Shown here: piece after piece, positions 16,791 to 61,692 of the stretch
Layout of the letters: each line of letters starts with the position of its first letter
Position numbering within the stretch: the stretch's first letter is position 1
Assembly: GCA_000310025.1 (NCBI GenBank)
Contig: FN649729.1
Location: forward strand, 2,209,316 to 2,273,315
DNA length: 64,000 bases
Reading direction: 5' to 3'
Origin: Ectocarpus siliculosus
Taxonomy: Eukaryota; Sar; Phaeophyceae; Ectocarpales; Ectocarpaceae
The notes under the pieces: model-generated
What the model was told of the DNA's origin: nothing
Databases searched by the model: none
What the model saw: only the letters and a program-made list of their open reading frames with translations
Program-made: the position numbers and the translations under genes

Positions 16791-16799
16791 CTTTGTATG

Positions 16800-32330: not shown

Positions 32331-35300
32331 ATGAACCCCTGGAATGAAGACCGGCTGCGGGAGGACAGCGATCCGGAAGACGAGCCTGCGTCCGGACCGA
32401 TCACGACGACTGATTCACCCCGGCGGAGAAGAAGTAGCTTAGGCAGCCGGACCCCCAACGACTTGCCTGGCCTAGAGGTGCCCCCGTCACCCGCTGGTGG
32501 CAATGCGGGCAACTTGCCTTCGAACCGATCTACGTTCAGTCCCGGCGCCTCTCCGCCTACCAGCAGTGGGACGCGGTTCGGACGGCGGCGATCCATCGGC
32601 GCGATATCTCTGAGGTGCGCGGCCCACTATTAATAAACAGCAACCCCACTAATGTATATGTAGTTGTATTAGTGGGGTTGCGTGTTTGTCATCCTGTGGT
32701 ATACGTTGGAGTTCAAACCGGGCAGGGAGGCTCGCCTGCCAGGCACTCTCTCTCTGGTTTCCCCTGCCACGGATATCCCACAAACCCGTCGGAGAGAGGA
32801 AAGCAATGCACCTGTACAAGGCGGATACGAAGAAGTATTTTTGTAGGCAAAGTTGCTGTGGTGGAACCTCTACAGGTTTGTCTCTGGGTCCAGGTTGGGA
32901 ATCAGCTTCTCCGTACCCGTCCGCCGTTGCCGTTTAGTGTGTGTGCTGGGGGTGAGAGAATCTCCGAACCAGAACAGACCTTAAATCAGTGGGCTTCGCC
33001 CGTGCACCACAGGTGCAAAAGCAACATCAGCAGCAGCTACCTGCTGCAGAGGCAACCGCTGCTGCTTTCGTGATGTCGGGATCGGGTCGTTTAATTTCTG
33101 AATTTTCAGTATTCCAGAAGGAAAGATACGCGTTATCTTCAACCATTTGTTTTGTCTGTTGGAGTCTCTGGAGCGGCTCCGGTGCACCGCTGGTGTGTGT
33201 GCTTCTGTGCCGGACCCTTGACCTCGTGTGAGCAACCGCTCGCTGTGTAGCACGTGCACCGTTTGATTTCGCCGTCCGGCAGCCCAGCGCAACGGTACTG
33301 AGGAAAATAACGTTCCGAAAATCAAAGGAAACGTGTGGTACTACAATACGCGTAAGGTACTGTAGGTTTGCGTAAGATACCACACCCCCTGAGAGGTTTC
33401 GGCATCCTCTTTGTTCCACGACAAAGAGGATGCCGAAACCAAGTGACGCAGCTCTCGGCGAGACAGTTTCAACGCCGCCATTTTCCGGCACCGCCACTGC
33501 TGTTGCTCCTGCCGACTAGTCAACCATTGAAATTGGCCCACGCGGGGTGTGATATCTAGTGCAACCTGCAGTACTACTGCTCTACGTTTGAGACTGAAAA
33601 TCCCTGCGCTTCTTGCATTTTGAGCTGTGGCATTTTCTCGAACGGTTATGCAGGCTATTGTGTTGCGTGTGGCGTTGTGGCATACCGTTACAGCAGTATG
33701 CATACATATGGATGCATATGCACTTGTGCACATATTTTCTGAGAAACTCAATGCTGTGATACAGTATACATCGATATTTTTTCAACTTGTGGAAGATGGG
33801 AGGAAGCCGTTTCGGGAAACGATTCCAAATTGGAATCCAGGGAACCATATAGCCTCACGGTGCTCGCCTCATATACGCCCATTTGCAATGAATCCTGCGT
33901 ACGTGGTATTAGTTTGTAGCTCCACTATTGTGACCTTCTTGGAGACAAGCTTGAGTACCTAGCGCGGAGTTTGCGCAGATGATGCCTTGAAATGATCTAT
34001 TTCCAACGATTGATTTCCAATCGGGAGTTTCCAGTTGAATTGATCGTATCCGAGGCAATCCGAGGCGATATGCTCATTGCACACTCCTTTCTACAATTTT
34101 ATGCCCAAAACTTGGTTCCGAAAGGACAAAAAAAATCACAAAGCACAAACAAAATCCCTAGCCAAGCTTCATCAAATACTAAAAGACAAGTGCATGGACA
34201 ACGCAAGCATCGAACCAACGAACCGCGAAACCGTACGCAGGGGCCCGTCGAGGGCGGACGGTGCCCAGATGGCGGACGCCCGGGCGGCGGCGGAGGCTAC
34301 GGCTCGGAACAAGCTGGAGCAGGAGGCCCCCATCCGAGGTCTCGCCAAGTACGTGTTCTTAAGGCCGCACTGGGGGTCGCAGTACTTCCTCTTCAAAAGA
34401 AACAGGAAACGCCTGGAAACGCCTGCAAATCTCGGTTTTCCAAATTCTAACTTCAGTACGAAACTTCCATCGCAAATTGACCGTCCGCCGACCCCCCCTC
34501 GTGTAAAATGTTAGTAGCTGAGGTTGTAGCCCTTGCGATACACGACAGACTAGCGGTCCGCGATTTTCCAAACGATCCTTCTATCATCGAGTTCGGTGAG
34601 CTACAAGCTAGATTTTTGAAGCTACTGTGCGGTTCAATTTTGAAAGCTTCATGCACACGGTGAACACGAATCACCGCCTATGTGAGTGTATGGGGCCGCG
34701 AACTTCAGCGCAGCTCTTCCCTCACATATCCAGCTGGTCGCCATTGTCGATTTGAATGCCTGGGGTCATGTATATGCATGTCTAGCCTGTAAGCAAAGGT
34801 GCTTGAAGCGTTTCAAAATCGGACCTCACAGCAGCTTCAAAAATCTAGCTTGTAGCTCACCGAACTCGATGATAGAAGGATAATTTGGAAAATCGCGGAC
34901 CGCTAATCTTGAGTGTATCGCAAGGGCTACAATCTCAGCTACTAACATTGTCCACGAGGAGGGGTCAGCGGACGGTTAATTTGCGATGGAAGCTTCGTGC
35001 TGAAGTTAGACTTTGGAAAACCGAGACATGCACGCGTTTCCTGGATTTTTCGGAGGAGGTACTGCTATTCCCAGTGCGCCCTTAAACAGCGCAATCTGTT
35101 TTTTGTTTGGTGGTACAGCAGTAGGTGCGATGTTGCAACACCCTCCGGTGGGTCAGAAATTTGGAATTTTGTACCAAAGAGCAAGAGGTTGAGAGTGTCC
35201 TGAAAATGTTACAACAAGGACAGTGCAATCTTTCGTTGAGAAATATAGCGGGCAACGTATGAAAAGTTCAATCAAAAAGAGTGGCCATCTACACGCATCT

Positions 35301-38300
35301 ATGTACACGCCTCGATGAGGGCATCATCCTGCGAAGCAACAGGTCGCGTCGTAAGAGACACCCCCTAAATGTTCCTGATCGAGGTGCTACGAACGCAGCG
35401 TGATGAACAAGGAAAACCTTTGATTGAAAAAATGACCAGGTGCGGTAGTTCGACAATTTCACGTCTCTGTTTGAAAACCAGCACCTGTTCGCTCGCGAGA
35501 AGCCGATGAGCTTCGACTCGAACGTGATGTTTCTAAACGTCGAGCGGTAGCCGTAAGGCAGGGGGGAATATAGCTACCAACGTCGGGTCCATCGGTTGTA
35601 CGTTGTGGTATGTTGGCTTCAGCCATACCGCAAAACCACCCTGATCCCCTCCGAAACCTAGATCGCAGTCCAAGACGCTCCCCCCCCCCGACTAGGGATT
35701 CTGCAGGCCCTCGGCGAAGCACCGCGTGCCCGCGAGAAGCATTCCCAGAAAGCGCAGATCGGTCCTTCGGTTTCAAAAGGAGCAGCTTGAGGTTATCGAT
35801 GATTCTGTTGGCCGCTTCTCCCCAAATAGACGAGCGAAGTTGACCCCTCCTGATCCCAAACTCGGTCCAGGTTGCTACGTGCTGTTCCGGGAGAAAAGTC
35901 ATGCTGAAACAAAGAAGATCAGATTTTCGAGGTATCGTGCGTACAGTATGACGAAAGATGTGACGAACCTTACAGAGCGATTTGTACACTTTCCCGCATT
36001 TCATTAGGCAAGGGGTTCGCAATGAACGCACGCCGCGCACTTCAGTTGCCGTACGCCCGAAACAACAAACGCCCCGAGTTTCACCTATGCCCATCTGCCT
36101 GCCTTTCCGGTGATGGACGACTGGTGTTGACAGACAAATGTCCCGAATGGATATGTTTTCTGGCACCAAAAAGAGCGGCGGCGCGGGCACCAACAGCCGG
36201 CCGGGCCACAAGAAAAACAGCAGTGGGATGGGCTTTCTACTCTCTTCCGCGCAACCCCACTCGAGGGTGCCCTCTAGAACCGACGACAGGTCGCCGTGGG
36301 AGGTGGCCTCGATAGCAACGGCGGCGCCCCCACCGTTGCCGCGACCAACGGGCGCGGGAGTAGCGCAGACACCTGTCGCTGTCACGTCGACAACAGCTGG
36401 GCGACAACAACGGGGCAACCAGGTTCAGCCCGACGGCAACGTCAGTCCCGGGAGGCTCGAAAGGGCTACCGGTGGAGGTGGCGGCGAATATGGGGTTGAT
36501 GGGTGCCGTAATGCTTCCAAGACTCCCGCGGGGGTGGCGGTAACGCACGGCGTTGGGCACAGCGGCGGAGCGGGGGCTAGCCGGCCGCCCCCCCAGGACG
36601 ACGTGAACTACCCCGACACGCCGCCCCCGCTCCGGCGCATGCAACGGCGAGGGAGCCTGGTGAATCGGGAGGTGCCACAGGAGGATGAACCCAAGGAACC
36701 CATCGAGCCCGAGCTCATGATCGGGGAGATTCAGGTCCGTACACACAATGTTGTATGCTGGTCGAAGAGTTTTTTTGTGATACCTCCTGCGGAGCCAACC
36801 CGTGGTACACCGCTCTCTGCCGTCTATTCGGCCCTCCCTCGATAATCTGCACATGTCATCCCGCCAGCAGCAATGTATGTTTTTTTATGCTCCCGTCGCT
36901 GCAGGCTTCCTTCCGCCACTCGATTATCTGAGATTAGTTGATCTCTCCGAGAAGAAAGGCTGTGATTTTTACCCCGCGTGGTCGAGTCGCAGAAGAGCGA
37001 ATGGCTGTCACTGCTCGTCTTGACAACTGTTCCATCGACTGATCCTCATTTGATTTGCCATTCACCCGGGAGGCTTAGCCGCACCCTCGTATCTTGCTGA
37101 GCTGCTGCTATTGCTGCTGCTGCTGTCATTCCTGCTGCCGCCTTGCTCGTGCTTCAGAGTATCCGTCTACACGAGGAGATCGCGCTCGTGCGGAGGGCCA
37201 TCGTGTTGATCATGTTGAGCCTCGTGGCCGCTGTCCTCGTGCGCGCGTTCGCCGGAGAATTGTGAGACACAGGGCGAGAGCGAATGACACCCAGGAAGAC
37301 GTAGATGAGACGAATAGACAGAGCATATGTCAGAGCTGGCTGGTTGGAGAGACACTGATGCTCCCGAACCCATCAGGTTCTGTCGGCATAGCATTACTCC
37401 CTGCAGACGACAAGACCTGTGGTCGTTTCTTTCATATGTTGTTCAGGATCTGTGAAATCCAAAACCACACTAAGTTTGTGTTGGGGCTATGCTCTTGTAC
37501 TGCAAACGCCATGTGTATACCATGTTGCTGTGCGTGGGGGGTCAACATTGGTTATTTTCGCGTTTGGTTTCCATGCAAGAAACGCAAACCCTCTTGTTCG
37601 AGTCAAATCAACCCCGTTGCAGCGAGCCCCTCCACGTTCGCCAAGTTATCGGAGGAGATTGAGGTTGTTTCGCCCAACACATCAAACGCGCAAGGATTGC
37701 CTCGTTTGTTCGCTTTTGGTGTGGATACCGCGCCTACTGCTGTGTAGGCATAGTCAGTGGCGATCTTGGTTGCGACCCTTCCAACCACCATCTCTCACAC
37801 GTGTCTCTCTGCTTGTGCAGGGACAAGGACGTGAACATTCGCGAGGTAGTATTTTTCGTGTCCTTGCTTCTCCTGTCCTTCCCGGTGATCCGCTTCACCG
37901 CCAGACTGTTCGCCTTTGTCATCACCACGAGGGCGTCCGGGCTTCTCTATAGGGGTAACCGGTGCGTGTTGGCGACCGTTCCGTTCAACAAGTGCTAGGC
38001 GTGTTCTCCGTTTGGGCGGGTACGCGTAGCTACGAAAAACATTTTTTGCGTTTGGCCGTGTCCGCAAAGATTGACGGTGTGCTGCCCATTGTCGTGCGGT
38101 CAGACGGAGTTTCGAAGGGTATTATGCATAAGTATAGCACGGCGTGTAGTTGGAACAGCGATCCCCCCCTAGCAAACAACCAATCGTGAAACACCTGGGG
38201 CGTTTCCGCTCTCGTTGTATTTTGTGCGTGCTACGGGCAGCTACTACTTCGTGGTCGCTCTTCACTACGATATTGCCGTTACCATCTGGTCAGTCGTGGC

Positions 38301-41300
38301 CATGTATATTTGGAGGGAGCTGTTTCATCAGTGGGTGTATACGGACGACAGCAAACTGGCGAGAGCTATATTCCGACACGTCAACCCTGCGCTTGAGGTA
38401 TGACCCGTATTTTGCGTTGTGGTGCGCGGAGTCTTTTGTGCTACAGTACCCGGCCGGCACCGCACCACTGTTTCGAGCTTGTTGTTGTGTGATCGTTGTT
38501 GTTCCTTCTCCTTCCGCTGTAGTCGTGTTCCCAACTCCGAGCAAGTAGGCGTGTGCGCAAAATGCTTTCCAAATTGGCCAAAGCTATTCGATCCCAGTCG
38601 CAGAGTGAGCCTGCCACCCTCCGCTTCCTTCTATTTCCGAGAATGCCGTTTTCATGATTGACCGAAATTGACTGGTATATTGCAGAGGACGTCTTGTCCG
38701 CATTCGCGCATCTGAGCAGGTGTTGTAATCGAGGGTGTCTTTTGAACGCGGTCTTCGCAACAGGTACACAAACTCCACATTTCCTTGCTCGTCCCATGTC
38801 CCTGTGTTCGGCGCGCTTGGCGTGCACAGAAGGAGCACAATATTTACTCCTTCTATTGTGGGCATCACAAGTTTTTTTCTTTCCGTTCGTTCTGGCATGC
38901 TTTTCGCAAGCCCTCTGCGGTCATCTTCCAGTTGTTGGGGGCATTGCTTGTCCGGGAGATTGCCAGCGAGCCACTCACAATACCCGCGCTCGGTGGCCGT
39001 GGGCAAACCGATGCTGCTACAAGACGTCGACCCGTTTTTCGCCTGTAGCATGGCGTCTGGGCCGGTAGCAATCATTGAGTGTTCGCATCTATGCAGGCCT
39101 TGAATGAGGCCCCATGGTGTGTGGAACTGTTGATGCAAACAGCCCCGCCCGCTCTGCCTGGTGTCCGATGCCCTCCTGCTTGGTGACCGACGAAACAGTG
39201 CCACCTCGCCCTTCGAGTGGGCATCCTCTTGAAGAACTACTTGGTTCTGCTCGTGGCGACGTCATACCTTTGGCGACCCTACCTACAAAGGGTTCAGGTG
39301 ACTTTGTGTACATAGTAACCTAAAATAGTGGGCGGACATTAAGCGGTTTGCTCAGCAGCGGTTTTTCATGTTTGTTTGCGACCCTGTTTTTTTATTGGTC
39401 TGCTTCACTGCTTCTGGTTGGGCTTTGGTATGGTTTTACGTTTCCCACCTGATCTTGCGTGGTTTGGCTGGGTCGGAGGAACTGCCGTTTGCCTCCGCGC
39501 AATTGTGGCGTAGTCGTCGTCGTCGTCGCAGAATTTATTGTTCATCACGTTGTGTTGAGGTTTTGTGCCTTCGTGCCCCAAGTGGTTTCGACTCCCTTGC
39601 CTGTCTTTGTTTTTGCATCCTCTTCCGGGTCCCGAACTTCGCCGGGGCCAACAGAGCAGCATCCTGGCGCAGTACATCCTGCTGCTGCTCACAGACTACT
39701 GCACCAAGGGCTACTGCAACCCTGGCGACCAGAACTTTGCGATCGAGATGGGTCGGCAGGGCATCAAGGAAGGGAAGAACATCTCGCTCTACGCAGTCTC
39801 GAAGGCCATGGGATTCATTCCCCGGAACAAGCTTGGGCACACGTTTTTCAGGTATGCGAATGCGCACGTGGTGTATATGAGACATGTCTACTGCACGGGT
39901 TGGCGGCGTGTATTGGTCGTCCTTGGTTGCGTTATCTGGCATGTTTTGACTCTGGGCGTCCCGTGGGTTGATTCTGTCCGGTGGTGAATCACTTTGCCCT
40001 CGTTCGTGGCTTGGGGGATCGGCAGGCAGCTAGCGGGAAGCAACACGCTAGATTCGAGTAAGGACGCGACCACGCTCGGGAACTTTCTGTTCGATCAGCT
40101 CATCATCCGCAGCCGCCCGCCACCAGCCCGCCCCACCACGAACACTTCGCCTCCGCGCAAGAGCCTCGCCGCTGCGTTCACCGCGGCCGGAGGCGGGAGC
40201 ATCCGGATGTCGCGAGGCAGTCACGCCGGCGCGGGCACGTACAGGGCTCTCCCCCGCTTCGGCGGTCAGATGCAGAAGCGAAACAGCGAGCCGATGGCGG
40301 TGCCCGCCTCCCCGCGGACCACGGTGGCCTCTCCGAAGAGGTTCTCGATGTTCGAAGCTGGTCGCCCTCAAGTTGAAGGAATGCCGCTGGCGAATGGCGG
40401 TGGGGGCGGCGCTGCGGCGGGTAAGGTGCCGGTTGCCAAGGCGGTCTCCAGCAAGGCTTCCAGCACCCTCAGCAAGCTCGTCCCCGTGGCTGGGCGTGCC
40501 GCGTTGGTGTCGTCCGGCAGAGGGGGTGCCGGCGGCGGCACCGAGAGCAGCGATGCTCGATGTGATGATGTCGGGACCACCTCCTCCGCAAACACCTCCC
40601 CTGGCAGAAGCAGGGTCCGCCGACGTAAGGCTGGGACTTGTGTGGACGGGGTCGACCTGTCGATCGAGGTTGCTTCTGGGGGGGAAACGGAGGCGACTGG
40701 TGATACCGGCACGGAGGGGGAGAGCCCCGAGCAGCCGGTGGCTTCAAAGTCGCCGAGCGGGCGTGATACTAGGATAGATCGGGCCCGGATTCTTGCCCAA
40801 AACAGGAGCGTTTTTACCAGCTGCAGCAGCGTCGCCAGCAGCAGCAACTACGGCGATAAGGAGTGCGGCGACGGCGTTGATGGAGAAGGCCGTCAGAAGG
40901 ACCAAGAGGATACAGTGAAGGGGCAGGCAGCGCGGAGTGGTGAGACGAAAGCCGAGAAAAAGGAGAAGCCAAAGCAGGAGGAGGTGCTGGTGCGGACGAC
41001 ATTTTGCCCGGCGCTTGAGCCGGAGCTGCTCGACGTGGCGTTCAAGATCTTCGACCTCGACAACAGCGGCACCGTTACCAAGGAGGTGCGGCCAGAATAG
41101 TCGGGGCGGCAGTACACGAGATATAACCGGCACGATCAAGGCAAAACTGTGTGTGGCGCAAACGACGACAGATAGTGCACGGGCTTGTTTGTGTCGAAGG
41201 ACCTACGGGTGACTTGAAAGTTCCAAAGACCGATCCTGATTGGAAGGTTGAGCATGCCGACGCTTCTCGAAGGTTGTGAGGAAGAAGTGCCTATACGTTA

Positions 41301-44300
41301 ACTTGAATCTGGGGGGGTGGTCGCATCTGAGGGGGTTACCGATGACGTGCACGCTTGATCTGCTCTCTTCGTATCCGTTCATACTCGTTACCAAGCTGGA
41401 AGAGACCCCGCCAGTACTCTGAAGGTAGACTGCGATGTGTGTGATAGCAAACAAGGTGTGGCATGTTCCGTCTGTCCGTTGGTTCCCGACACGGTTTGTT
41501 TTTTTGTTTCATCATGTCTCGACGTTAACTGTAAAGGAAATGGTGCTGGGCGTTGTCGGGACGTTCAAGGACCACAGGAGCCTCGCCCACACCCTGCAGG
41601 ACAGCGAGCACATCGCGCAAAAGCTTGGCCTCATCATCATGTGTGTCATCCTCTTCATCCTTTTCGTGAGTGAAATGCCAAGCATTGAAAAATCGCGCTT
41701 GTGGCAACCCAGACGAGTTTGCTATGTGCGACTGAGCGATGCTAGTGGGCGGTAACCCGGGGCAATATCCAGTGCAGCCGATGACATCCCACGCATTCGC
41801 GGTGTGTCTTTCACATGGTTGTGGTGCGAAGGCTATACCATGCCGAAGACGTTCACCGTACTCATATTGTTCGAAGGCTTATCATTTGCCATAGGCATGC
41901 CCGCCCACTTTACATCCTCGAGGAGCAGGTTCGTGCCTCCGAAAGGTGAGCCTTGCAACAGCCACCTATTTATCGACAACACGCTCATCGTGAAACACCT
42001 ACCACACCACCATCAATGAATGTTCAGTTCGTGTGGCTGTCGATCTGGGGGGCGGACGTGGTCTCCCTGAGCGTGACCTTCGCGTCGTTCCTGATCGCCT
42101 TCTCCTTCATGATCGGCACCGCGGCGAGCAACCTCATGTCCGCGGTGCTCTTCATCTTCGTGTCGAGGCTGTACGACGTCGGGGACCGGGTGCACATCTA
42201 CAGCGGCAGCAATACCCAAGGCGAGGAGCCCACGAACGTCACGGTCGTGAAGGTCGACCTCATGACGACCGTGTTCAAGCGCTGGGACGAGCAGGTGGGA
42301 GATTGTTTTTTCCACCTCTGGTTGTGTTCTTCCCGTTGTTCCTACACATGCTGAACACCGAGCAGGTGGCGGAAGGGGCGCTGGCGCGTCCGAGAGGGTC
42401 GCGGGAATTATGCGGACCGCTTCTTGGCATCGGCCGCGCTGGCAGACAGACCGACAGAAAAATGACGTCGGTCTAAGCGGAAACAGTGAAAATGCTTCCA
42501 TTAATGGCGCTCTCCCGGCAGGGTGTCCGGGACAGGACGGATAATGTCACCCTCCCGCAACTTGTGGATCCCGAAGCACGTGCCGTGATTTCACCGCTGG
42601 TCCTTCCCAACTCTTTCAAGGTTCAGAACGATTTCCCGTCGTCACGGGCTTTACCCGAATATGGTGCTCGAGTAAAACGGGACTTGTAGACACGAAGACA
42701 AGGTCCAGAGACTGATTGCCCAATTGCCAACGTGTATTCTACGAGTCTACGAAGTCCAGCAGCAACAAAAGCCGGGTTGCGACCCCAAAAACAAGACAAG
42801 CCGATGAATCGGCACCGAGCGAGCCTCACACGAAAAGCAGCCAAGTTATCTTGCTATGTAAAAATGTTGGATCATATCATCCTTTCCCCGGATTCGAAGG
42901 GCAAATATCGTCATGTCTTCGCTCCCGTCCCTCATCCACGCGCTGTTTCACGTCCTGCTCTTGTTGTTGGCTCCAGGTGTTTTATATGCCGAACCATTTG
43001 CTGGCAACGAAGACGATCGTTAATATCCAGAGGACGGCGCACCAATGGCACGAGTTCATGATTCAGGTGTGGTTGTCGTGGAAAGAGGTTGAGGTATTTA
43101 GCCACTTGGATTGGGAAGCCAGAAGAACGGTGTGGTCTTCGCGCGCGTCGAAAAATGTACAGGATGGGTGGCAGCATGGATGTGGACGACTTTTTCGGTG
43201 CACTAGTCGCCTAGTGTGCTATGAAATGAAGCAAAAGGGCGAACCAAGTTCATGTATTTCGATGAAGTGCGTGCGGCATTCATCAAGATGAGGGCACTAC
43301 AGGGTATACCCAAAGTACTACAGGGGTATTCCCAAAGTAGAGCCAACTCTTGTAGTTGTGTCGTCAGGCGAGAGGGTGGCTTCGAGCATACGCTTTTGTG
43401 GCACGGGACGTTTTGATGTCGTCGGGTTTGGGCTCTGCTTGACAGGGCGCGGGCGAGCTCAGGAGATGCGTCCGAATCATTGTGGTATGGAGCACATGTC
43501 TTGTCGTATTTTGACGTGCCGGCAGCCTGAAAGTACGGTGCGAACTACCCCCCATGGCTAACATCCTTGCTGCACTCTCTTGTCGCGTTCGTTAACATGG
43601 TCCGTGCTGTTCGCCTCTCTCTGCTGATGCCGGCGTTTCTGTTTTGCCTCCAGGTTGCAGCTACCACCACCCCCGAGAAGCTGACAGCATTGCAGACCTC
43701 GCTGCAGGAGTTTTCCAAAAGCAAGGACAAGCCCGAGGGTACGTTGGTTGTTAGCGTTCGTCATTGTTGTGATTGGCAATGGTGTTTTGTGAGGTATTTT
43801 GAAGCACGTTGTCTACTGAACTTGCCTTTCATTTGGCATGACGCAGTTTTCAGAAGGGAGCTATGATTGAAGAGTTTCGCACGTGCAAGTCTCATTGAAT
43901 GGCTCTGGCGCTACACAAGAAGCGGCCCAACCTCCGCGTGGTACGTTCGCACGTCCCAAAGAAGATCAAAACCAACCCATTTTCGGTATTTCTTTGCGTT
44001 TCTCGGGGACGGCGAATGGCAGGGCTGTACACGCGCATGGGTTTCTCGCTGGTGAGAATCGAAGACAGCACCAAGCTGACGATTCGTATCACGTTCCGGC
44101 AAAGGGGCAACTGGCAGGTGGGCCAAGAGGCGATAGTGGTCGCGGTAGAAGGCAGTACATCTGTCAAACGCTCCCGCTTCCAAGCTGTCATGGGCAAGTT
44201 CTTCCGAGGAAGGTGTAATAGCACGCCTACCGCGATCCGTGAGGCTGGCCCATTGGGGTAACCTGCCGACAGGAAGGTCGACTGAATAGTGTAAGCTGCG

Positions 44301-45124
44301 TCTTTGTGAGAATTCTCATAGCTTCGACGGCGGGTCACGGGAACGGAGGCTAGGCGGCGTTCATAACCCTTCCGGTGGGGTGCAAATATCGCCAAGGGTA
44401 GCCAGAAGGTTACGTGGCTTGTTGTCGTGTTTCAGCCGCCAGGTTGCTCGCTGAATACGCGCGCGAAAACATCCTGTACCCAGATTTCGAGCTACGATGA
44501 AGGGGTGTGTGGGACTCCGTAGTTCGGCCGCGCAATCCCTTTCCCGTCTTGAGTGCGTTGTGACGTACCGAGCGTAACTTTCCTTCTGTGGTTCGCATGC
44601 GTTGAAGAATACCTCATACACGATCACAATTACAGGCGTTGAATTGGTGTACACCGGCTGGGTCGTTCCATCGGCCATCACACGTTAAACTTTTGTCGTC
44701 ACCTTTGTTTTTTCGCAGAGGGATTGTACTAGGGTTAAGTCGAGAGCAGGTTGCGGCACGTGTTTGAATTGTCCAGCCTCGATTCGTTTCCCGCGCAACC
44801 GATTTTTTAACCTCGTGCCGCCGCCTGTGGCCATGATTGCGGATGTCCATTTTTTTATGGGGCAGTATCATCTGCTTTCTGCTTGAACAAAAACCTATTG
44901 CCTCGACCATCTATCCCTCTCGCCTCCTCCGATCCCCCACCTTTTCCTGTTTTGCTGTCCATACCATATCGTTCGGTCGATCCGCTCTTTCCCATCAGAA
45001 CATGGAAAAGAAGTGGGCCTGCCAGAGTATGTGCACCTGGGCGATCAAGAGCGCCTGTGACAGCCTCAACATTTCGTACTTCCTGCCGGAGGTTCCGGTT
45101 CAGATGAAGAAGAAATCGGCCTAA
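32331..45124 (+). CDS. MscS-type mechanosensitive channel with EF-hand, copy A (15 exons)
   Basis: Predicted tension-gated ion channel of the Msy1/Msy2-like eukaryotic MscS group. Exons: 32331-32614, 34241-34348, 36134-36734, 37158-37261, 37821-37961, 38241-38397, 39199-39297, 39655-39851, 40026-41085, 41537-41665, 42028-42294, 42977-43066, 43654-43738, 44023-44117, 44999-45124; 1,180 residues. Order: disordered N-terminus (1-330); TM helices at about 340-362, 375-400, 415-440 and 475-492; a conserved soluble stretch (LLLLTDYCTKGYCNPGD); a long low-complexity linker (about 570-880); an EF-hand loop DLDNSGTVTKEE (about 907-918) with all calcium ligands; TM5; then the pore-lining helix and MscS beta domain (FMIGTAASNLMSAVLFIF, YDVGDRVHIY, about 980-1060). 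The C-terminus ends MKKKSA. ATG 32331 is supported by the paralogue's matching first exon. Splice phases agree throughout. Membrane location is unknown; Msy1/2 act in the ER. Confidence 0.92.
32640..32681. repeat. Perfect 14-bp inverted repeat in intron 1 of copy A
   Basis: GCAACCCCACTAAT (32640-32653) pairs exactly with ATTAGTGGGGTTGC (32668-32681) across a 14-nt loop. It lies 25 bp after the first-exon donor. Confidence 0.85.
33395..33440. repeat. Perfect 20-bp hairpin in intron 1 of copy A
   Basis: Positions 33395-33414 (GGTTTCGGCATCCTCTTTGT) pair without mismatch with 33421-33440 around a 6-nt loop (TCCACG). Confidence 0.9.
34357..35087. repeat. Long inverted repeat (about 290-bp arms) in intron 2 of copy A
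   Basis: The left arm 34357-34656 and right arm 34799-35087 are reverse complements at roughly 85% identity by eye, around a 142-nt loop. Shared blocks include AAAAATCTAGCTTGTAGCTC, CCGAACTCGATGATAGAAGG and CGCAAGGGCTACAA (as read on the right arm). The left arm starts only 8 bp past the exon 2 donor at 34348. No open frame is conserved, so it looks like a foldback or MITE-like insertion. The paralogous intron in copy B lacks it. Confidence 0.85.
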
Positions 45125-51600: not shown

Positions 51601-54600
51601 CGGAAACGAGTCCAACGGTTAAGCCATCCGATCGTGAGCCGTTACCTCGATAGAGCAGGGCACCAAGACTCCCACCTGTTCGTCCCAACGCCTGAAGGAA
51701 GTCGTCCTCAGGTCGACCTTGACCACCACTACGTTCATGGGCTCCACACCCGCCGTCTGGACATCGTCGTAGATATGCACCCGGTCCCCGACGTCGTACA
51801 GCCTCGACACGAAGATGAAGAGCACCGCGGACATGAGGTTGCTCGCCGCGGTGCCGATCATGAACGAGAAGGCGATCAGGAACGACGCGAACGTCACGCT
51901 CAAGGAGAGCACATCGAACCCCAGGATCGACAGCCACACGAACTGAAAAAAAACGATGTTTTATTTGTCGGTCGGTCGGTCGGTCGGTCGCGCGTGGTTT
52001 GCGGCGAGGGCGTCGTCGACAAAGGGAGAGGGTGGCCGGAGGTTGAGGCTTGACTGACGATGGACGTGTGGTGTTGGGGCTCACCTCCCTCACAGCTGAG
52101 TACGAACAAAACTCGACGGCCTTCCTTATCAACTGCACCGGCATGAGCGGAGTGTGTACTACACGCCGCCATCGGGCGGCTGATCGGGACACCATCGCGA
52201 GGAATTTTTTTCACTGCTTGTATGAGCGGTTCTACGCCGCCTCGACCTTGGTACGGTACCCCTGAGACGTATGATGCGCTTTGCGTGAAGGTGAACGATG
52301 CACTCACGGCAAGGACGAACAATATGAGCCAAAAAATGATGAGGCCGAGCTTCCGCGCAATGTGCTCGCTGTCGTGCAGGGTGTGTGCCAGGCTCCTGTG
52401 GTCCTTGAACGTGTCCACGACTCCCAGCACCATTTCCTGCCTCGGCAAGTCGTAAACCAAAATGAAAGATGAGACAAACGCCAGTTGTGGAAAATAGTCA
52501 TCTCACGTTCGTCGAAGTCACCCTCGAATATGTCCGCACTTAGTGAATAACATTGTTATGCATAGCTTGATGGGTGTCCCTATTTCACCGCTAGTCCTAT
52601 TTCGAATATTTTTCGTGACCCACATCGGATGACCTCGCTTCGTTCTCTGCATTGTGCAGCTTTGATTCGACGTTTGCCGAAGAACTCGTTCTAAGTTCCC
52701 TGCTTACACGGGAACAACGAACCCCTCCGTGCTGCAGTACGTACCGCCTTCGTGATGGAGCCATTGCTGTTCAAATCAAAGATCTTGAACGCCATTTCCA
52801 GCACCTGATGTTCCAGCATCGGACAGAGGGTTTCCCTTGTCAGCAATTCCTCCTCCTGAGGCTTATCTGCCTCGTCGCTGTCCCCCCCCTTCTGTGTGCT
52901 ACCGTTGCTTTGTACATTGGTGCTCTCCTCGTGCTCTTTCTGAACGGTGCCGCCAGCAGAACCTTCGCCCCTGCTGGCACCTCCGGCGTCCTTGTCGTTG
53001 CGATCCTCACTGCTGAAACTGCCTCCGTTTGCGGTTTCCTTCGCAAGCTCGGACACATCGTGACCGTACCTCGGCGCCATAGCATCGACCACACGAAGCG
53101 ACGAAAACTCCATTTCTGCGCAACTGGCGGTGACTTCCGCCTTCGACTCGCCACCTACAAAGGGGTCGCTGTCAGCGAACGAGTCGGCGTCCTCTATGAC
53201 CGATAGGGCTCTTTTTCCTCCTCCGTGGAACTCCCTGAACCCAGCCATACCGCCGCCGCCCTGGCTCGGCAAAACTTCGTCCATCGGGATCTCGCTGCTA
53301 CCGGCATCACTCGCATCGGCTGTGTCGACCGTGGCTGTGGCGGCGCCGGCGGCGCTATCGCTGGCAGCTCTGGCATTGGGACCCATGCGCATCTTGTTGA
53401 CACTGCTTGAAAGTTTGCTCGAGACCCTGGTGACGATCGGAGACCTGCCGCCAGCTTCGCGGGGCGCGCTACCCGCCGCCCGTCCCCCCGCTCCCGAGCG
53501 CGATCTCAACCACGGCGCAGGCTTTAATGTTGCGTCGGAAGAAGTTCGCTTCGAGGGCGAGAGGCTGCCTACGTCGCCTGCCGTCCACGAGGAGGGCAAG
53601 CTCGCGCGTTTGCTCGCGCCGAGTCGACCGCCGCGAAAAGACTTCGCGTTCAAAGTGTTCGCGTTGCTGCCGCCCCCGCCGCCGAGAACGGTCTGGCCCA
53701 CGTTCGCCAGGTACGCCCAGCGCCTCGTGGCGGGGGAAGCGGGCGCGGTGCATCCCGGCGAGTACATGCGACTCCTGAGGAGGAGCTGGTCGAACATGTA
53801 TTCTCCGAGGGTCTTGGCGTCCCTACTGGAGTTCAGCGTGTTGGTCCCGCCTAGCTCGCTGCGGTTACCAGCCAACAGCAAAGAGAAGGGGGCATACACA
53901 GTTGGGATCATGGTTTAAACGAGCGGACAAGAAACAAGAAACAAGAACCGTTGAGGGAGACAGTATGATACCTGCTTCAATCAGAGCGGAATGCTCTGGA
54001 GCTAGGGAAGCCCGCCGCATGAGGGACGGCACCCATATGGAGAGAAAACAACGCCATCGTGTAGCCCCAAACTATGGGGTGTAGCCAGCCCTACACTTGA
54101 GGTCTGTCACTCTAGTTCGGCATCTCAGCGGCTCGAGGAGCACACTGATGTCGACAGCATCACACGCTTGTGGAGATCACCCCAGATTGACCACAACCCA
54201 CAAAGGTATGGGGACGCCTCGCACAGTAGTGGAACACAAAACCAAACAACACCTGCGAACAGCACAACAACTCGGACAGCAAGCGCAGAATACTGCACAC
54301 GCCGCCGCGGCAGACGAAACAAGCCGTGCCAAAAAAGACACGAAGAAAAAAGGGCGTTCACTTGCTGCACCGAAGCGACAGCACTGGGGCCAACAACAGA
54401 CGACCCCGCACCGGAAGAAAGCGTGCCCGAGCTTGTGCCTGGGAATGAAGCCCATGGCCTTCGAAACGGCATAAAGCGAGATCTTCTCCTGCTCCTTGAT
54501 TCCTCGCCGCCCCATCTCAATCGCGAACTTCTGGTCGTCCGGGTTGCACTCGCCCGTGGTAGCGTAGTCCGTCAGCAGCAGCAGGATATACTGCGCCAGG

Positions 54601-57600
54601 ATGCTGCTCTGTTGGACCCCGTGGGGGTAGTTTCGTTGTTGTTTCATTCATAACAAAACAGATACATAGTGAGGAATACGAATGGGGCGCACGTGTGTTA
54701 GCAGCTACAAGAGTCCGCTCGTTGCCTCAGACTTACCGCAATGAGGTTCCATGCCATGCGGATACGCTGATACTATTTATAGTTTCGAGTGTTTCGCGCC
54801 TTTTCGTAAGTCTGATCAGCACGAGCGCGGCATGTTTAGTTTGTGGTTCATCGGTTGACAAGGTGCGTCGCAATACAAGAGATCGCGTTTATTCTTGTTT
54901 CAAGGGGGTGTTCGGATATTGCCCCCATAGTGTAGAACAAATCCCACTTCATACGGTGAATTGGGCCTGGCGGGTGTTTTCTTCTGGTCTCAAAGCAAAA
55001 TTGGGACAGTCATGGCCTTCACAAAGTTGAGGGGTCACGCGAGGTTATTCAACGCTTGGTCACCGGACCATATTTGTTGGAAATTCGAAACGTGTTATAG
55101 TCCCAGACTTGTCACTGGGGCTTCCGGTCGACACAAACGACGTGCTGAATTTAAGCTGTACCTGGTACATATCATACATTTTTCTTTGTTGGTCATTTTC
55201 CACCTCCAAGTTGAAAAACAAACCAGTCCACGGAACGCGATGCGGTTAACGCCAAATGGCCACGAAGTGCTCCGCGCTACCCTAACAAACTCTCAAACTC
55301 GAGACCGATAAAGTGAGGGGCAGGGGGTGGAAACCTTCAAGAGGATAGTAAATACTCTCAGGTGTAAAGACAATCGGGAGACCAGGTGGAGATCCTCTTG
55401 ATCGCGGTTGGCTGTGATCGCACCTGCACCCGTTGCAAGTAGGGCCGCCAGAGGTAAGAAGTGGCCACCAGCAGCACCAAAAAGTTCTTCAACAGCATAC
55501 CAACTCGGTAGGCCACATAGCACTGAAGGAGAACAAATGTTGCGAACGGATACGTAGCACACATCAGATGTCGTTGAAACTCGGCGCATAGCACGACAGG
55601 GGGGTATCGCACGTGTTTGGCTGCGACGCTTAAAGAGGAGGCACAATCAACACGCTGAGGTACCGTGGCATGCAGAACCCCAGGTGAAGTTGTACCTGGA
55701 AAAATTCGTCGCCGTAGCGGTATGCGTTCCCCGATAGCTCACTGTCGGTGGGATACACCCATTCGGCGAACAGCCGCCTCCACACGAACATGGAGGCGAT
55801 AGACCAGATGGTCATGGAGATGTCCTGGTGCAAGGCGACCACGAAGTAAAAGCTTTCCGCACAGCGCAAAGGACGAGGTTGCAAGCGCAGCGAGGGGGGC
55901 GACAACCGCCGTAGGGGGCAGTAAGGGTCGGTTTCCGTGAGGCTAATGCTAAAGTGGAATCGAATCTCGATATAAACCTCGATTCACATGTAAACATCGA
56001 GGGTATGGCATCATAGCCCGAGGGTAGCCGCCCGGCGCATCTCCAGTCCCCGGTATTTTTACTCAGAGAGAGTTCGCGCGGAAAACTCGCAATAGTCGCT
56101 CGCCGTTTGGATCAACATGGTGCCGGTTGCGCCCCCGAATACACATCCAGGAATAGGACTTACGGTGGCACAGTGTCATTTTCTGCTAACACACGTGTGG
56201 CACAAAGTGCACAACTTGAAGATAAACACGACGTGACAACCGAAGACCTGGGTTTTCTGGGAACCCTGTGGACTGTGGACGCCATGCAATCACAGCTGAA
56301 AGTGCCGTTGCTTTCATGCCTCGTTTCGTCACCGTAATTCAAACAAACACCAGGCCACGGCCGAATGGCCTACTTCCGAACTCTTGGTGAATATGGGTTT
56401 CGTGTGGTGACACAGAAATCTGTGGTATATTTTGGCCAGCCAACACATTGAACAACAGCACCACCTTTTCCACAGGTTCCGAACCCGAGGCGTTGAAACG
56501 GCGCATGATGTTTGCGCGGGTGTGAAGAAAGATGGGTCGGGCTGAGAAACAGACCAGGCAGAAACGCATCCATCTACAGGGCCTGCACGACAGGCCAATG
56601 ATGGTGATCAGAGTTGAAGGTGTACCTGTGTAAGAGCCTTTCGGGGAATTCGTAGTGGGACCACACAAAAAAATGAGTAGAAAATGGACGTGTACCTGTT
56701 TCCTCTGTAGAGGAGGGCCGACGCCCTTGTGGTGAGAAAATAGGCGAACAGCCTTATCGTGAAGCGGATCACCGGGTAGGAGAGGAAGATTGTCGACGCA
56801 AACCCGACTACGTGGACGATGTTCACGTCTTTATCTCTGCTCGTCCATCCACCATTGTTCGTCGGGGGTGTCGTTAGAGAAGAGAAGCCGCATGCGTGGG
56901 TGAGAACATGCCGGAATGACACCGAAATGTAGTCAAGAACGATCAACGTTTGCGTGTGATGCGGAAGTGGTGCCAGCAGCACCAGCACAAGCAGCAGCAC
57001 CCGCAGGAAGGCGCCGATCCAGGAGCGGAACGCACGGTAAAACGAGCAGCCGAGAAGAGAAAAAAAGTCAGCATGGGCCGATCTTGTGCGTGGCGCTCTT
57101 CCGCATCTTCGAGGTGAATCGCCTCGTTACGACGTCGTGAGACCGAATATTAGCACGATCGATAACTCACTCCCCAACCCCGCCACATCTTGCCAAATAC
57201 TTCAAAGACCCTTATGTCCATTGACCGACGGTTTGCAAAAGGCAGCACGACATGACTAGGCTATCGGTAACGCTGCACAAGTTTTTTACCGACATGGGTT
57301 CCCTCTCGGCGACACGTCAAATGGGGCAAGGGGTTGTTCGTGCGCATAGCTGACAGCGGTGGTGGTTTCGAGACGACTCCTGACAGTGTAGCTCCTATGG
57401 CATGCGAAATACACAAAATATCAAGCAAGACGTGCCATTGTGGCGAAACTCACAAGGGTCCCGCGAACTCGCGGAACAAGGTGGCCCCGACAAGGCTGAC
57501 GAAGATCAACACTAGAGCCTTCCTCGCCAGCACGATTTCGTCCGTGATTTGGATGCTCTGCATGGCCAACCAAGGAACAGCGTCAAAGGCGAACATGGTC

Positions 57601-60600
57601 ATCGTCGTCAGTAACATAGTTAGTGGCAGCACCATATCCGTATCAGCATGTGTATGTCAGTATCACATCAGTGTCACCAGCACTTGGAACAAACCCCTAA
57701 ACCAAGCACAAAAAATACTAATCCAGCACGCATTTCACATCCGAAATTGAGCGCATCGGCTGAAATCAAAGCGGGGCGGATCGACATACTATTCATCCCA
57801 GAGGGGCGACTACAGGAGCGGAAGGAAACACATGCACCCAACGTGCTGGGAAACAAGTTCCGTTTGCCCTCCGACGGCAAAACGTTGCGCAAGTCGCATA
57901 TCTCGGAATGCGGTATTCCCGGTGGACCCCCCTCCGGCCTCTTTCCTACTCACAGCAGTCCTATTGCCCTATTCGAATCCCGTTCGCATGAACGTGTCAT
58001 ACACTCCGTCGTCCAAAGTACCTTGATCTCCCCGATCATGAGTTCTGTCTCACTCCTGGTGTCCATTCGCTCCTCCTTCGTGTCGTGAACGTGGACCAAG
58101 TTGGGCCGATTCTCAGTGGCATTCAGCTGAGGAGGAGTGGCTGGAATTCTAACTCCATCGAGGGCGTTGGGCAGAGACATGCGGCCGCTGACATGCCCCA
58201 TCGACCCCGTAGCAGGATGACGGCTCGCCTTATCCACGCCGCCGCCAATGCCGCCTTCTTCGAGGTGGTGGGGGTTAACGAAGCCTTGATGGTTTAAGGT
58301 CTGCCGTCGCCCTGATGCCGATGCAGGATAGACTTTCGTCTCGCCGGAGAACGGTTTCGCTCCCACAACGTCTGCTGCAGATAGTCGTGTTTGCCCCGAA
58401 GGAGGCCGCCCTTCTACAGGTGCAGGAGAGGGCCACAGAAACCCCATGAGGCTGCTGGCATTTTTCTTGTGGCTCGGTCCGCCTTGGCTGGTTCTGTGGT
58501 GGTGCGACCCGCTGCCGCTGGTGGTTTTCGAATGCTCCCGCGAACTGGTGCTTTTCGCGCTGCGTGAAAACAGGTCCCAGTTTGATAGCTCCCTGTGTTC
58601 ATGCGGTGAAGAAGCGCACCCAGGTGTGTTGTAACAATGGTCAGGAAAGGTGATGATGAAATGGCGAAAAGTCACCCTGGCTGTAAAGTGAAACATGGCC
58701 AACTCCCGGCGATAGGACGAAACTTCGGCTTGGAACTGGTGAATGTTGAGCTCAACGGTGAAAACGGCCATGCCCATCGAGAAGCACCACCTTGCCGTTA
58801 AAGCACATTCCGCCGGCGGTCCCCTTTCCCCGCCCCCCTTCCACATGCCCGCCCCGTGGCTCATTCCCTGTTCTACTATGTAAGTCAGTGTGATGAAAAG
58901 GCCGGGAGCCCACAGAGGTCAAAAGTACGAAGGAAACTATTTCGTACTTTGCAAGTCCTCGGATCGGGGCCTCCCTCTCCCGCTCCGTTTGAGCTGATTC
59001 TGCGGCCAACGCTTCCTCCAAAAGTTGTGCGTCGTCAGTCCTCGACAAGGTCCTGCTTTTCGTCACGTACGCGGGGGATTGGGGTGGGCGGGCACGAGGG
59101 GAGTGGCTTGTTTCTTCCCCAAAACAATCGTGAAATGGTGCACACGCGCCTTCAATAGCAACTACAGTCTCAACGGACGCACCTCGTTCAAGCGCGCAAT
59201 TACTGTTCCCAACAGCGTACAAGCGACGGCGGGGCGTACAAACCTACTGCTGCTGCTCCGGCGGTGAGCAAGTAGCCAGCAGGACTAGAAGCATGCTGCA
59301 GCAACAGAAGCAGCCCGCAATATTCTACAGCGACAGAGGTTGGTGTCTCCTTCCTTACTAGTTCACGTAAAACCCAGACTCTCAAGAACCAAAACCAGAC
59401 ACCCGCCCTGGCGTCCTGGCACTGCCACTGCAACTCCGCAATGCTGTTGGTTGGTAAAACAAGACACCATGTTTTTGCTGGTGTCACCCGTAGGATCTGT
59501 TCATTTTGCGAGGAAGTATCCCGTGCGACGTGGACACACGCATCAAGCACTGCATGAATTGGCAACACCTCAAAATATTTCACGATAGCGGGTTCTACCA
59601 CTGCCGATGCTGCTTCCAATGTTAGCGCGCGTGCAGCGTTCTTTCATGAAGCCTCGCTTAGGTGGAGAGGGAGGCAAGAGAAGCACACTGTTAGCTCAAG
59701 AGTAGCTGGATGCAGGCTGACTGTACAACAAGCAGCAGAAGCAGCTGCAGCCGCAATAAATGTTTCATCCCTTGCTTGCGTAGCAGACGTACGATCATGC
59801 GCATGCATTTTGTGTTGCACCGTACGCTAATATCGTAGAAAATGCTAGGGCTGCGTGGGCGGGGGTGCCTCAGTGCCAATCTCGCTCCGCGCAAATAAAA
59901 GCCGAAGAGTGGGAGCCAAGCGGGGAAATGAATGAATAGCACCGTATTACATGAGCAAGTTCAGAAAGGAGGTATGCAGCACAGAGCGTTTTCCACTGGT
60001 GTTCTCAAGCCTGACCCCACCGACAGTATATCATGTTCGTGTCTGTACAATGATACAAATCGCAGACCAGAAAGAAAAAAAATGGCCCTACGACGCGACC
60101 GGGGACTGTTTCCAGTCTGCCGATCTGGCCTGACCTGCCTCAAATGAGTACATACGGTCCATCAGTAACGGCTTGGGCGGGTTAAACGTCCATCACGCAT
60201 CAGAAACGTGTTCCCGTGTGAAGGGCCTGGACACAATGAGCTGTGACTTCATGTTTGCTTCACAGCAGTATGTATACGAAGTGCCTATGGGTTTGCGCCT
60301 ATTATGATAGTAGTGTGAACTTTTCAGTCGACCACAAAGTTCGAGGCTGCCAGACCGTGCGTTGCCGTGGGCGAGGGTAAGGGTTGGGTTGGGTTGGGTT
60401 GGGTATCTAATCCAGGTGCGAGCCTAGCCTTCAACATCAGGTTAAGACCTACAGAGTCACTATAATAACAGACCTAAATAGCCTCGTTTTCATGTGTTCA
60501 ACATGATTGTCTGTATGCATGTTTGCCCGATACTGCTATCGGTGCTTACGTGCATGGCTGGGCCGGTCAACCATACCGGTCGGTTGACGAATCTGACCCT

Positions 60601-61550
60601 TAAAACAATGTAACTCTAGTATAAGAGGCCATCAGCGTGAAACAACAGCAGGCTATCACCATATGCAGCCCAGCGGGGAGTGCGTCAATATTTTGTGTCG
60701 GTTACGAAGACTCCGGGGTGCGCGCGTGCTACCACCACCTGTCCGGTTCATTCTCTTGCGCATTGTGTGCGGCGGTGTGTGTGTGCCATCGTTCGGGCTG
60801 GAAAAGCCGGTTCCACCAGCGACACTGCCACCAAAATTCAGCAACCCTGAAAGTTCAGAATAGGTGTGCATAGATTGCATGGACTTCCGGTCGGGGGAAA
60901 AAGCACGCTTACACATAGAGTAAGTAAGCACAACAGCAGGACTGCTGTACCGTAGGTTGAAAGGAAATGGTTTCACGAACGGTCATGTGTGATCCGTTTA
61001 CATATGTACTCCCCAAACCCAAAAACAATTGATTAAACACCCCCATAAATGATTTTCCATTGTACTGCTGTATGTACGGAGAGCGATTGTACCCCCAAAA
61101 CGCAGTGGTCGAAGCGTTCTTGTTTAGTACCGCGTACATATATGCATTCATATGCTGGAAGTAGTATGTAGGAACAATACGGCAAAGCACGGCTGCTGCG
61201 GGTACTGCTGCAGAACTCTGCACCGCCGGAGAGATTGAGCGAGGTGAAGGCAACCAACGACATACGAACCCGCAACAGCGAATAAGCACGCCCTTACGCT
61301 TTACGCTGTTTACTAGAAAAAAGAAGGTTAATGTTCGTTCACGCAGTCTCCCGCCCTTGTCCCTGTCTTCGTCCGCATTATATTTTGAAGTGAAATTCTG
61401 ACAGAAAACGCTTTGCGCTCCCCCACCTGCGGTGCACGATTTGCGATCGCCGTCTCACGAACCTACCCAGCCTACCGCTCGCAGAAGCAAGGCTGTTATG
61501 GTTAGAGTGCGAAGCATCTGCTCCCGTGCGTCTTGTGCTATCGTCATCCA

Positions 61551-61588
<38 letters not shown>

Positions 61589-61692
61589 GGAGGGGGCGGC
61601 AGCTGGTAAGGTGAGCTCCCCGGCCGTCGAGCGATGTCGCTTTCCTCTCGCGGCCGCCGGTAGTTGGCCCCACTGCCTCCGGGAGAGGCCAT
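48699..61692 (-). CDS. MscS-type mechanosensitive channel with EF-hand, copy B (15 exons)
   Basis: Inverted paralogue of copy A. Exons, 5' to 3': 61692-61427, 59052-58948, 58592-58022, 57557-57454, 56836-56696, 55852-55696, 55522-55424, 54608-54412, 53858-52745, 52436-52308, 51942-51676, 50645-50556, 50070-49986, 49598-49504, 48824-48699; 1,181 residues. Twelve of 15 coding exons have the same length as in A; only exon 1, exon 3 and the linker exon 9 clearly differ, plus 3 nt in exon 2. The EF-hand loop is DLNSNGSITKAE, with ligands intact. The pore/beta exon matches copy A at about 74 of 89 residues by my count. Specific to B: a 12-Gln run in the N-terminus and a C-terminus ending MKNKIS. 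ATG 61692 gives MASPGGSGANYRRPREESD, aligning with LREDSD in A. No disabling change was seen, so both copies look functional. Confidence 0.92.
51967..51990. repeat. (GTCG)6 microsatellite in intron 10 of copy B
   Basis: Six perfect GTCG units lie just upstream (on the minus strand) of the acceptor of the pore exon, next to its polypyrimidine tract. Confidence 0.9.
60375..60404. repeat. Interstitial GGGTT repeat, possible G-quadruplex
   Basis: The run reads GGGTAAGGGTTGGG followed by three more TTGGG units, giving at least five G3 tracts on plus. It lies within intron 1 of copy B, where the pre-mRNA would carry the C-rich strand. It resembles, but is not, the TTAGGG telomere unit. Confidence 0.8.
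61552..61587. repeat. (CTG)12 = coding CAG run for poly-Gln in copy B exon 1
   Basis: Twelve perfect CTG units on plus are read as CAG on minus, giving Q12 between LPPPP and LDDD. Copy A has no counterpart. Confidence 0.9.

What the first reader, a model, noticed from the sequence alone, without database searches (positions are those of the whole stretch)
32331..61692. Inverted, tail-to-tail pair of complete EF-hand MscS channels with identical exon structure
Copies A (plus) and B (minus) each have 15 exons. Every intron falls at the same codon and phase, and 12 of 15 coding exons have equal length (for example 104, 141, 157, 99, 197, 129, 267, 90, 85, 95 and 126 nt). Introns and spacers show no evident similarity. 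This points to an old gene duplication in inverted orientation, with purifying selection on both copies. Two closely linked channels of this kind could form heteromers or divide labour by calcium sensitivity.
Basis: partly seen in the sequence, partly recalled or inferred. Interest (0 to 1): 0.75.

Follow-up and report, generated by a model that had tools for sequence, protein, structure and literature searches.

The report
Facing pair of EF-hand MscS channels
Two old, still-constrained copies of a tension-gated ion channel gene sit tail to tail in what looks like an algal genome, and one short stretch coding for the pore and gate is almost identical in DNA although the rest has drifted far apart.

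Summary
Gene A (+, 32331-45124) and gene B (-, 61692-48699) each have 15 exons; all 14 introns are GT-AG at the same codon and phase; 11 (not 12) of 15 exons have equal length. The predicted proteins (1180 and 1181 aa) carry an MscS beta-domain and one EF-hand-like loop; the closest solved relatives are plant MSL10 and FLYC1. The conserved core is 74% identical with omega 0.07 and dS about 2.2-2.6; a pairwise omega far below 0.5 implies constraint on both copies. Introns and flanks show no convincing similarity. No other close relative was found in this genome. So: an old inverted duplication of a known kind of channel. The likeliest cause is a later short gene conversion; position-specific constraint on synonymous sites is the main rival, and weak residual synonymous similarity elsewhere in the core keeps it alive. 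Heteromers, calcium gating, expression and date were not testable here.

The parts
32331..45124 (+). gene A, 15 coding exons, predicted 1180-aa EF-hand MscS-like channel
   Evidence: Pfam MS_channel_2nd 33.2 bits vs cut-off 20.2
48699..61692 (-). gene B, 15 coding exons, predicted 1181-aa EF-hand MscS-like channel
   Evidence: Pfam MS_channel_2nd 38.0 bits vs cut-off 20.2
32331..32614 (+). A exon 1 (284 nt)
34241..34348 (+). A exon 2 (108 nt)
36134..36734 (+). A exon 3 (601 nt), low-complexity N-terminal region
37158..37261 (+). A exon 4 (104 nt), hydrophobic segment 1
37821..37961 (+). A exon 5 (141 nt), hydrophobic segment 2
38241..38397 (+). A exon 6 (157 nt), hydrophobic segment 3
39199..39297 (+). 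A exon 7 (99 nt), hydrophobic segment 4
39655..39851 (+). A exon 8 (197 nt), conserved start of the TM4-TM5 linker
40026..41085 (+). A exon 9 (1060 nt), weakly conserved linker ending in the first 11 residues of the EF-hand loop
41053..41085 (+). A EF-hand loop residues 1-11 (DLDNSGTVTKE; residue 12, E, is the first codon of exon 10 at 41537)
   Evidence: Pfam EF-hand_1 21.6 bits, below cut-off 25.4
41537..41665 (+). A exon 10 (129 nt), leads into TM5
42028..42294 (+). A exon 11 (267 nt), pore helix TM6 and start of beta-domain
42079..42194 (+). A side of the near-identical tract: 116 nt, 1 mismatch to B (26 + 1 + 89 nt)
42977..43066 (+). A exon 12 (90 nt), beta-domain
43654..43738 (+). A exon 13 (85 nt)
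44023..44117 (+). A exon 14 (95 nt)
44999..45124 (+). A exon 15 (126 nt, with stop)
61427..61692 (-). B exon 1 (266 nt)
58948..59052 (-). B exon 2 (105 nt)
58022..58592 (-). B exon 3 (571 nt)
57454..57557 (-). B exon 4 (104 nt), hydrophobic segment 1
56696..56836 (-). B exon 5 (141 nt), hydrophobic segment 2
55696..55852 (-). B exon 6 (157 nt); homologous to A segment 3, but below the hydropathy threshold used
55424..55522 (-). B exon 7 (99 nt), hydrophobic segment 4
54412..54608 (-). B exon 8 (197 nt)
52745..53858 (-). B exon 9 (1114 nt), weakly conserved linker
52745..52777 (-). B EF-hand loop residues 1-11 (DLNSNGSITKA; residue 12, E, is the first codon of exon 10 at 52436)
   Evidence: Pfam EF-hand_1 17.5 bits, below cut-off 25.4
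52308..52436 (-). B exon 10 (129 nt)
51676..51942 (-). B exon 11 (267 nt), pore helix
51776..51891 (-). B side of the near-identical tract (116 nt)
50556..50645 (-). B exon 12 (90 nt)
49986..50070 (-). B exon 13 (85 nt)
49504..49598 (-). B exon 14 (95 nt)
48699..48824 (-). B exon 15 (126 nt, with stop)

Best explanation
A and B are two functional paralogues of a six-TM MscS-like channel of the MSL10/EF-MSL kind, made by an old inverted duplication. Shown: gene models, homology, constraint on the pair. Inferred from family knowledge: each protein forms a heptamer with a disordered N-terminus, TM1-TM4, a long cytosolic TM4-TM5 linker that ends in a single EF-hand loop, TM5, and the pore helix TM6 followed by the beta-domain cage; membrane tension opens a hydrophobic gate (the Phe equivalent to MSL10 F553, A residue F987), and cytosolic calcium at the EF-hand tunes gating. 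The regulatory parts (exons 1-3, 9 and two EF-hand ligands) have diverged while the pore is the same protein sequence. A 116-nt part of the pore exon was most likely copied from one gene to the other long after the duplication (gene conversion between the inverted copies, about 9.6 kb apart).
For: Gene models. Pfam beta-domain above cut-off in both. MSL10 E = 8.8e-26 and FLYC1 1.1e-25 with A alone; with the A+B profile MSL10 is matched over both the TM1-TM4 part (6.2e-06) and the EF-like/TM5/TM6/C-terminal part (3.2e-25). Core omega 0.073, dS 2.24; 0.069 and 2.56 without exon 11. No rate difference. Tract: 89-nt identical run, next longest run 26 nt, the one just upstream of it in the same tract, then 23 nt; 27 consecutive informative codons match, longest run by shuffling positions reached in 0 of 20000 (all 567 codons) and p = 1.5e-4 (347 core codons); under a codon model with exon 11's own base composition 4 of 50000; shuffling B's codons among same-amino-acid sites within exon 11 0 of 20000, and within the tract itself 3 of 20000 for the run and 6 of 20000 for the count. 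Internal control: a similarly conserved block in exons 7-8 matches at 19 of 33 codons, the tract at 35 of 38. Similarity stops at the exon ends.
Against: No RNA, no second species, no physiology. Splice sites partly inferred from the pair itself. EF-hand models score below their curated cut-offs in both copies. With exon 11's own lower fitted dS the run is less rare, 178 of 50000. Outside exon 11 the core also keeps more codon matches than same-amino-acid shuffling gives (162 vs mean 128.5, 0 of 5000 as high), although its longest run (7) is ordinary: so synonymous sites are not fully saturated or are weakly constrained, and the tract sits on a background that is not zero. The tract is very GC-rich at third positions (79 of 80; core without exon 11 643 of 814). 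HSP70 loci of this genome also show long codon-identical runs, but these mix overlapping loci, off-frame readings and probably recent copies, so they neither support nor refute.
Confidence: 0.7

Rival explanations
1. The exon 11 tract is identical because its synonymous sites are themselves selected (an RNA-level signal, splicing enhancer, translation-speed pattern), not because of gene conversion.
For: The tract lies on the most conserved protein segment; third positions are 79 of 80 G or C; weaker excess of codon matches elsewhere in the core.
Against: No unusual RNA folding of the 116-nt tract (z = -0.90; 35 of 200 shuffles fold as well). The same amino acid uses different codons within the tract (Ala, Leu, Ser, Val, Gly, Arg) and the copies nearly always agree, so simple codon preference fails. 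Equally conserved protein in exons 7-8 shows no such effect.
Confidence: 0.27
2. The tract is an assembly or polishing error that copied one gene's reads onto the other.
For: Both copies come from one assembly; the reads were not available.
Against: The tract is only 116 nt inside an exon that differs on both sides; reads longer than the tract would map to their own copy. This argument is general, not a test.
Confidence: 0.04
3. One of the copies is a non-functional relic.
For: No expression data.
Against: 15 open exons with intact GT-AG junctions in each; omega 0.073, rejecting 0.5 by 2 delta lnL 153.6; no rate asymmetry.
Confidence: 0.03
4. The copies assemble only as separate homo-heptamers in different membranes, as is reported for the two fungal relatives, and their closeness on the chromosome has no functional meaning.
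For: Msy1 and Msy2 of fission yeast are reported to have different ER locations and opposite effects on cytosolic calcium (passages of PMC6904872); in Aspergillus one paralogue is at the ER and the other at the plasma membrane (passages of PMC9367656). The N-termini of A and B are very different.
Against: None from the sequence; pore helix and most of the beta-domain are compatible with mixing.
Confidence: 0.5

Closest known systems
Plant MSL10 / Flycatcher1 (FLYC1) plasma-membrane MscS-like channels (PDB 8tdm, 8tdj, 8jwe, 7n5d)
   Same: Same order of parts; profile match over both TM1-TM4 and the linker end/TM5/TM6/C-terminal part; gate Phe and kink Gly of TM6 (F553, G556 in MSL10; passages of PMC10560256) kept as F987 and G990 in A (alignment).
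   Different: About 25% identity over 272 aligned residues; A and B have a regular 12-residue EF-hand loop where MSL10 has a degenerate one with an extra residue; much longer N-terminus and TM4-TM5 linker.
EF-MSL channels of fungi: Msy1/Msy2 (fission yeast), Crm1 (Cryptococcus)
   Same: One EF-hand upstream of the MS channel domain, six predicted TMs; two paralogues in fission yeast (passages of PMC6904872).
   Different: I had no fungal sequence to compare; the likeness is by described architecture only. The fungal pairs are not reported in those passages as linked genes.
MscS channels of stramenopiles
   Same: Every stramenopile in one survey has at least two MscS channels (passages of PMC11085791); Ectocarpus MscS genes are named as mechanosensing candidates (passage of PMC4166355).
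   Different: Those passages give no EF-hand, gene linkage, orientation or conversion for MscS; I did not see figures or supplements.

Membership tests
MscS superfamily | MscS beta-domain (PF00924) above curated cut-off | tested here: met
   33.2 and 38.0 bits vs 20.2. The six-frame genome search with the same model found nothing, not even A and B, because the domain is split by an intron.
MSL10/FLYC1-like (EF-MSL) subgroup | sequence match to MSL10/FLYC1 better than to bacterial MscS | tested here: met
   MSL10/FLYC1 about 1e-25, next YnaI-type 1.7e-4 and MscS 7e-4 or weaker
MSL10/FLYC1-like (EF-MSL) subgroup | six transmembrane helices, pore helix last | tested here: inconclusive
   Simple hydropathy: six regions in A; in B the third (exon 6) is below threshold. 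Profile match to MSL10 covers TM1-TM4 and TM5-TM6.
MSL10/FLYC1-like (EF-MSL) subgroup | EF-hand in the cytosolic linker before TM5 | tested here: inconclusive
   Regular 12-residue loops DLDNSGTVTKEE (A) and DLNSNGSITKAE (B), EF-hand_1 E = 1.4e-4 and 0.0029 but below the curated cut-off. Calcium binding not testable.
MSL10/FLYC1-like (EF-MSL) subgroup | hydrophobic gate Phe and kink Gly in the pore helix | tested here: met
   Alignment with residue numbers of PMC10560256
MSL10/FLYC1-like (EF-MSL) subgroup | heptamer opened by membrane tension | not testable with these tools
   needs protein and patch-clamp
Gene-conversion tract between paralogues | block of synonymous near-identity with abrupt edges in otherwise diverged copies | tested here: met
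Gene-conversion tract between paralogues | copies within a species more alike in the tract than orthologues between species | not testable with these tools
   no related eukaryote held; searches gave no orthologue

The most novel reading that the evidence does not exclude
Repeated short gene conversion, favoured by the facing arrangement of the two genes, keeps the pore helix and gate of the two channels identical while their sensor and linker parts diverge, because the subunits mix in one heptamer and a mismatched pore would be harmful: a 'shared pore, separate sensors' pair.
Probability: 0.12. Interest if true: 0.65.

Novelty: new member of a known kind. Interest (0 to 1): 0.4.

Why it matters
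If both copies work, this alga-like genome carries a linked pair of EF-hand MscS channels with the same pore and different regulatory parts, a natural experiment on how calcium and tension sensing are tuned in the MSL10/FLYC1 kind. The tract, if it is conversion, shows that a few dozen bases of an otherwise anciently diverged pair can be homogenised exactly over the gate, and makes trees or dates built on the pore exon alone misleading.

Tried and rejected
Third or partial copy in the window: tblastn of both proteins on the exon-masked window gave no hit at E <= 0.5. Further relatives in the genome: three protein pieces and the tract DNA gave only A and B (4 matches of 5 candidates; 2 of 2; 4 of 4; 6 of 6). 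Each search reads exon by exon and scores only the best candidates, so distant MscS genes (for example organellar ones) can be missed; the Pfam search missed even A and B.

Orthologues elsewhere: viral contigs and genome contigs gave 39 and 48 pattern hits and no relative (only two short peptide patterns each); a degenerate pore pattern gave 0 in viral contigs and 5 in genome contigs, of which one reads the peptide in a 49-aa open frame that does not look like a channel and the others did not give it; phage records no match.

Controls for the tract: HSP70 and Ras exons of the same genome. 385 rows, most of them overlapping loci of one gene or off-frame readings, so not usable as a clean control; four Ras rows (two of them the same gene pair region) match at 0.48-0.58 of codons with runs of 3-7; HSP70 rows mostly match at above 0.8 with long runs. 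RNA structure in the tract: none.

Rates: Biopython's YN00 failed for most exon sets and NG86 gave no dS for exons 3 and 15; my GY94 fits for 'all', exons 1-3 and exon 9 gave absurd dS and are not used.

Literature: searches showed no description of this pair; most subscription papers are not held.

Full report
Observation. The window lies at C4:2209316-2273315 of a genome of 189 Mb in 492 contigs. Comparing plus-strand and minus-strand reading frames found collinear coding matches in opposite orientation and inverted repeats that coincide with exons. I built both exon chains: A on + from 32331 to 45124 and B on - from 61692 to 48699, each of 15 exons, 14 GT-AG introns, same phases, 1180 and 1181 aa. 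The exact count of equal-length exons is 11 of 15. The stop codons are 3574 nt apart. In-frame stops lie 9 codons upstream of each start.

What the proteins are. Pfam finds the MscS beta-domain above cut-off in both, and EF-hand models below cut-off in both. The best solved relatives are MSL10 and FLYC1, and a profile of A and B matches MSL10 over TM1-TM4 and over the linker end, TM5, TM6 and the C-terminal domain. In passages of PMC10560256, MSL10 is a heptamer with six TMs, a gate at V549/F553 and a kink at G556; by the alignment these are I983, F987 and G990 in A. The same passages describe parts of the MSL10 TM4-TM5 linker and N-terminus as unresolved, which fits the weakly conserved exons 1-3 and 9 here. 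Passages of PMC6904872 name the six-TM, one-EF-hand architecture EF-MSL. I therefore file the pair there, with the EF-hand and the number of TMs marked inconclusive.

Age and constraint. Over 1123 aligned codons identity is 52.5%; in exons 4-8 and 10-15 it is 74.0% of 496, in exons 1-3 and 9 it is 35.6% of 627. My GY94 fit gives core omega 0.073 and dS 2.24, and rejects omega 0.5 by 2 delta lnL 153.6. NG86 gives a lower dS (0.895) and dN 0.180 for the core, so dS depends on method. If one copy had drifted freely the pair would average about 0.5 or more, so both were constrained for most of their history; this is inference from a pair without an ingroup outgroup. Against MSL10 neither copy is faster. 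Introns and flanks show nothing above chance. The duplication is old in substitutions; its date in years is unknown.

The tract. Exon 11 is unusual: 57 of 71 informative codons match, against 162 of 276 in the rest of the core. Within it lies an identical run of 89 nt (A 42106-42194, B 51864-51776), preceded after one mismatch by 26 identical nt. It codes for the pore helix with the gate, up to the start of the beta-domain. Three kinds of control were run: shuffling positions (0 of 20000 over all exons; p = 1.5e-4 in the core); simulating under the fitted codon model with exon 11's base composition (4 of 50000; 178 of 50000 if exon 11 is given its own lower dS); and shuffling B's codons only among sites of the same amino acid, which removes codon usage as a cause (0 of 20000 in exon 11; 3 of 20000 within the tract). 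A block of equal protein conservation in exons 7-8 matches at 19 of 33 codons, the tract at 35 of 38. No third copy of the tract was found in the genome. Gene conversion between the inverted copies explains a short block with sharp edges; so would a selected RNA signal, but folding shows none. A result that counts against a clean contrast: outside exon 11 the core also has more codon matches than same-amino-acid shuffling (162 vs 128.5; 0 of 5000), chiefly in exons 7-8, with exons 4-6 and 10 weaker.

How it probably works. Inferred: tension-gated heptameric channels in a cell membrane, opened by rearrangement of the gate Phe, tuned by calcium at the loop before TM5 (A: D, D, S, T, T, E at ligand positions; B: D, N, N, S, T, E). 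B has one acidic ligand fewer, so weaker calcium binding is a guess. The pore sequence is shared, so similar conductance is expected; regulation and location are where the copies differ. The fungal pairs Msy1/Msy2 and MscA/MscB show that two such paralogues can sit in different membranes.

Organism. The genome has many light-harvesting protein genes (87 matches) and one type III polyketide synthase match, so it is photosynthetic; 'brown alga' is my guess from genome size, G+C and intron style and comes from no call.

Literature. Of the papers I saw passages of six (PMC11085791, PMC6163359, PMC4166355, PMC6904872, PMC10560256, PMC9367656) and only listings of the rest. None of these described a linked inverted EF-hand MscS pair or a conversion tract in one.

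Verdict. A real, well-preserved inverted pair of a known kind of channel. Its most interesting part is the tract on the gate, which one alignment with a related species would explain.

Noticed in passing
window 34407-34645 and 34811-35049 (intron 2 of A): Inverted repeat with 239-nt arms, 90% complementary, 165 nt apart. One arm has 41 listed matches in the genome (302 first-look candidates, 40 scored), several as +/- pairs about 400 nt apart: a fold-back or MITE-like element family.
   Followed up: partly
G000:C16:245426-282213: Nine light-harvesting (PF00504) matches that alternate + - + - + - + - + every 4-6 kb: inverted neighbouring duplicates seem not to be rare in this genome.
   Followed up: no
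G000:C92, C232, C488: Arrays of PF00504 matches with equal scores, suggesting very recent copies or homogenisation.
   Followed up: no
G000:C119, C12, C478 (L006-L016): HSP70 genes on different contigs with long runs of identical codons and third positions about 95% G+C in the main frame.
   Followed up: partly
window 8100-8579, +: Exon of a cysteinyl-tRNA synthetase (PF01406, 59.7 bits).
   Followed up: no
window 16034-17851: Block of diverged repeats (64-88% alike).
   Followed up: no
window 61427-61692, -: Glutamine run (about 12 CAG codons) in exon 1 of B, absent from A.
   Followed up: no
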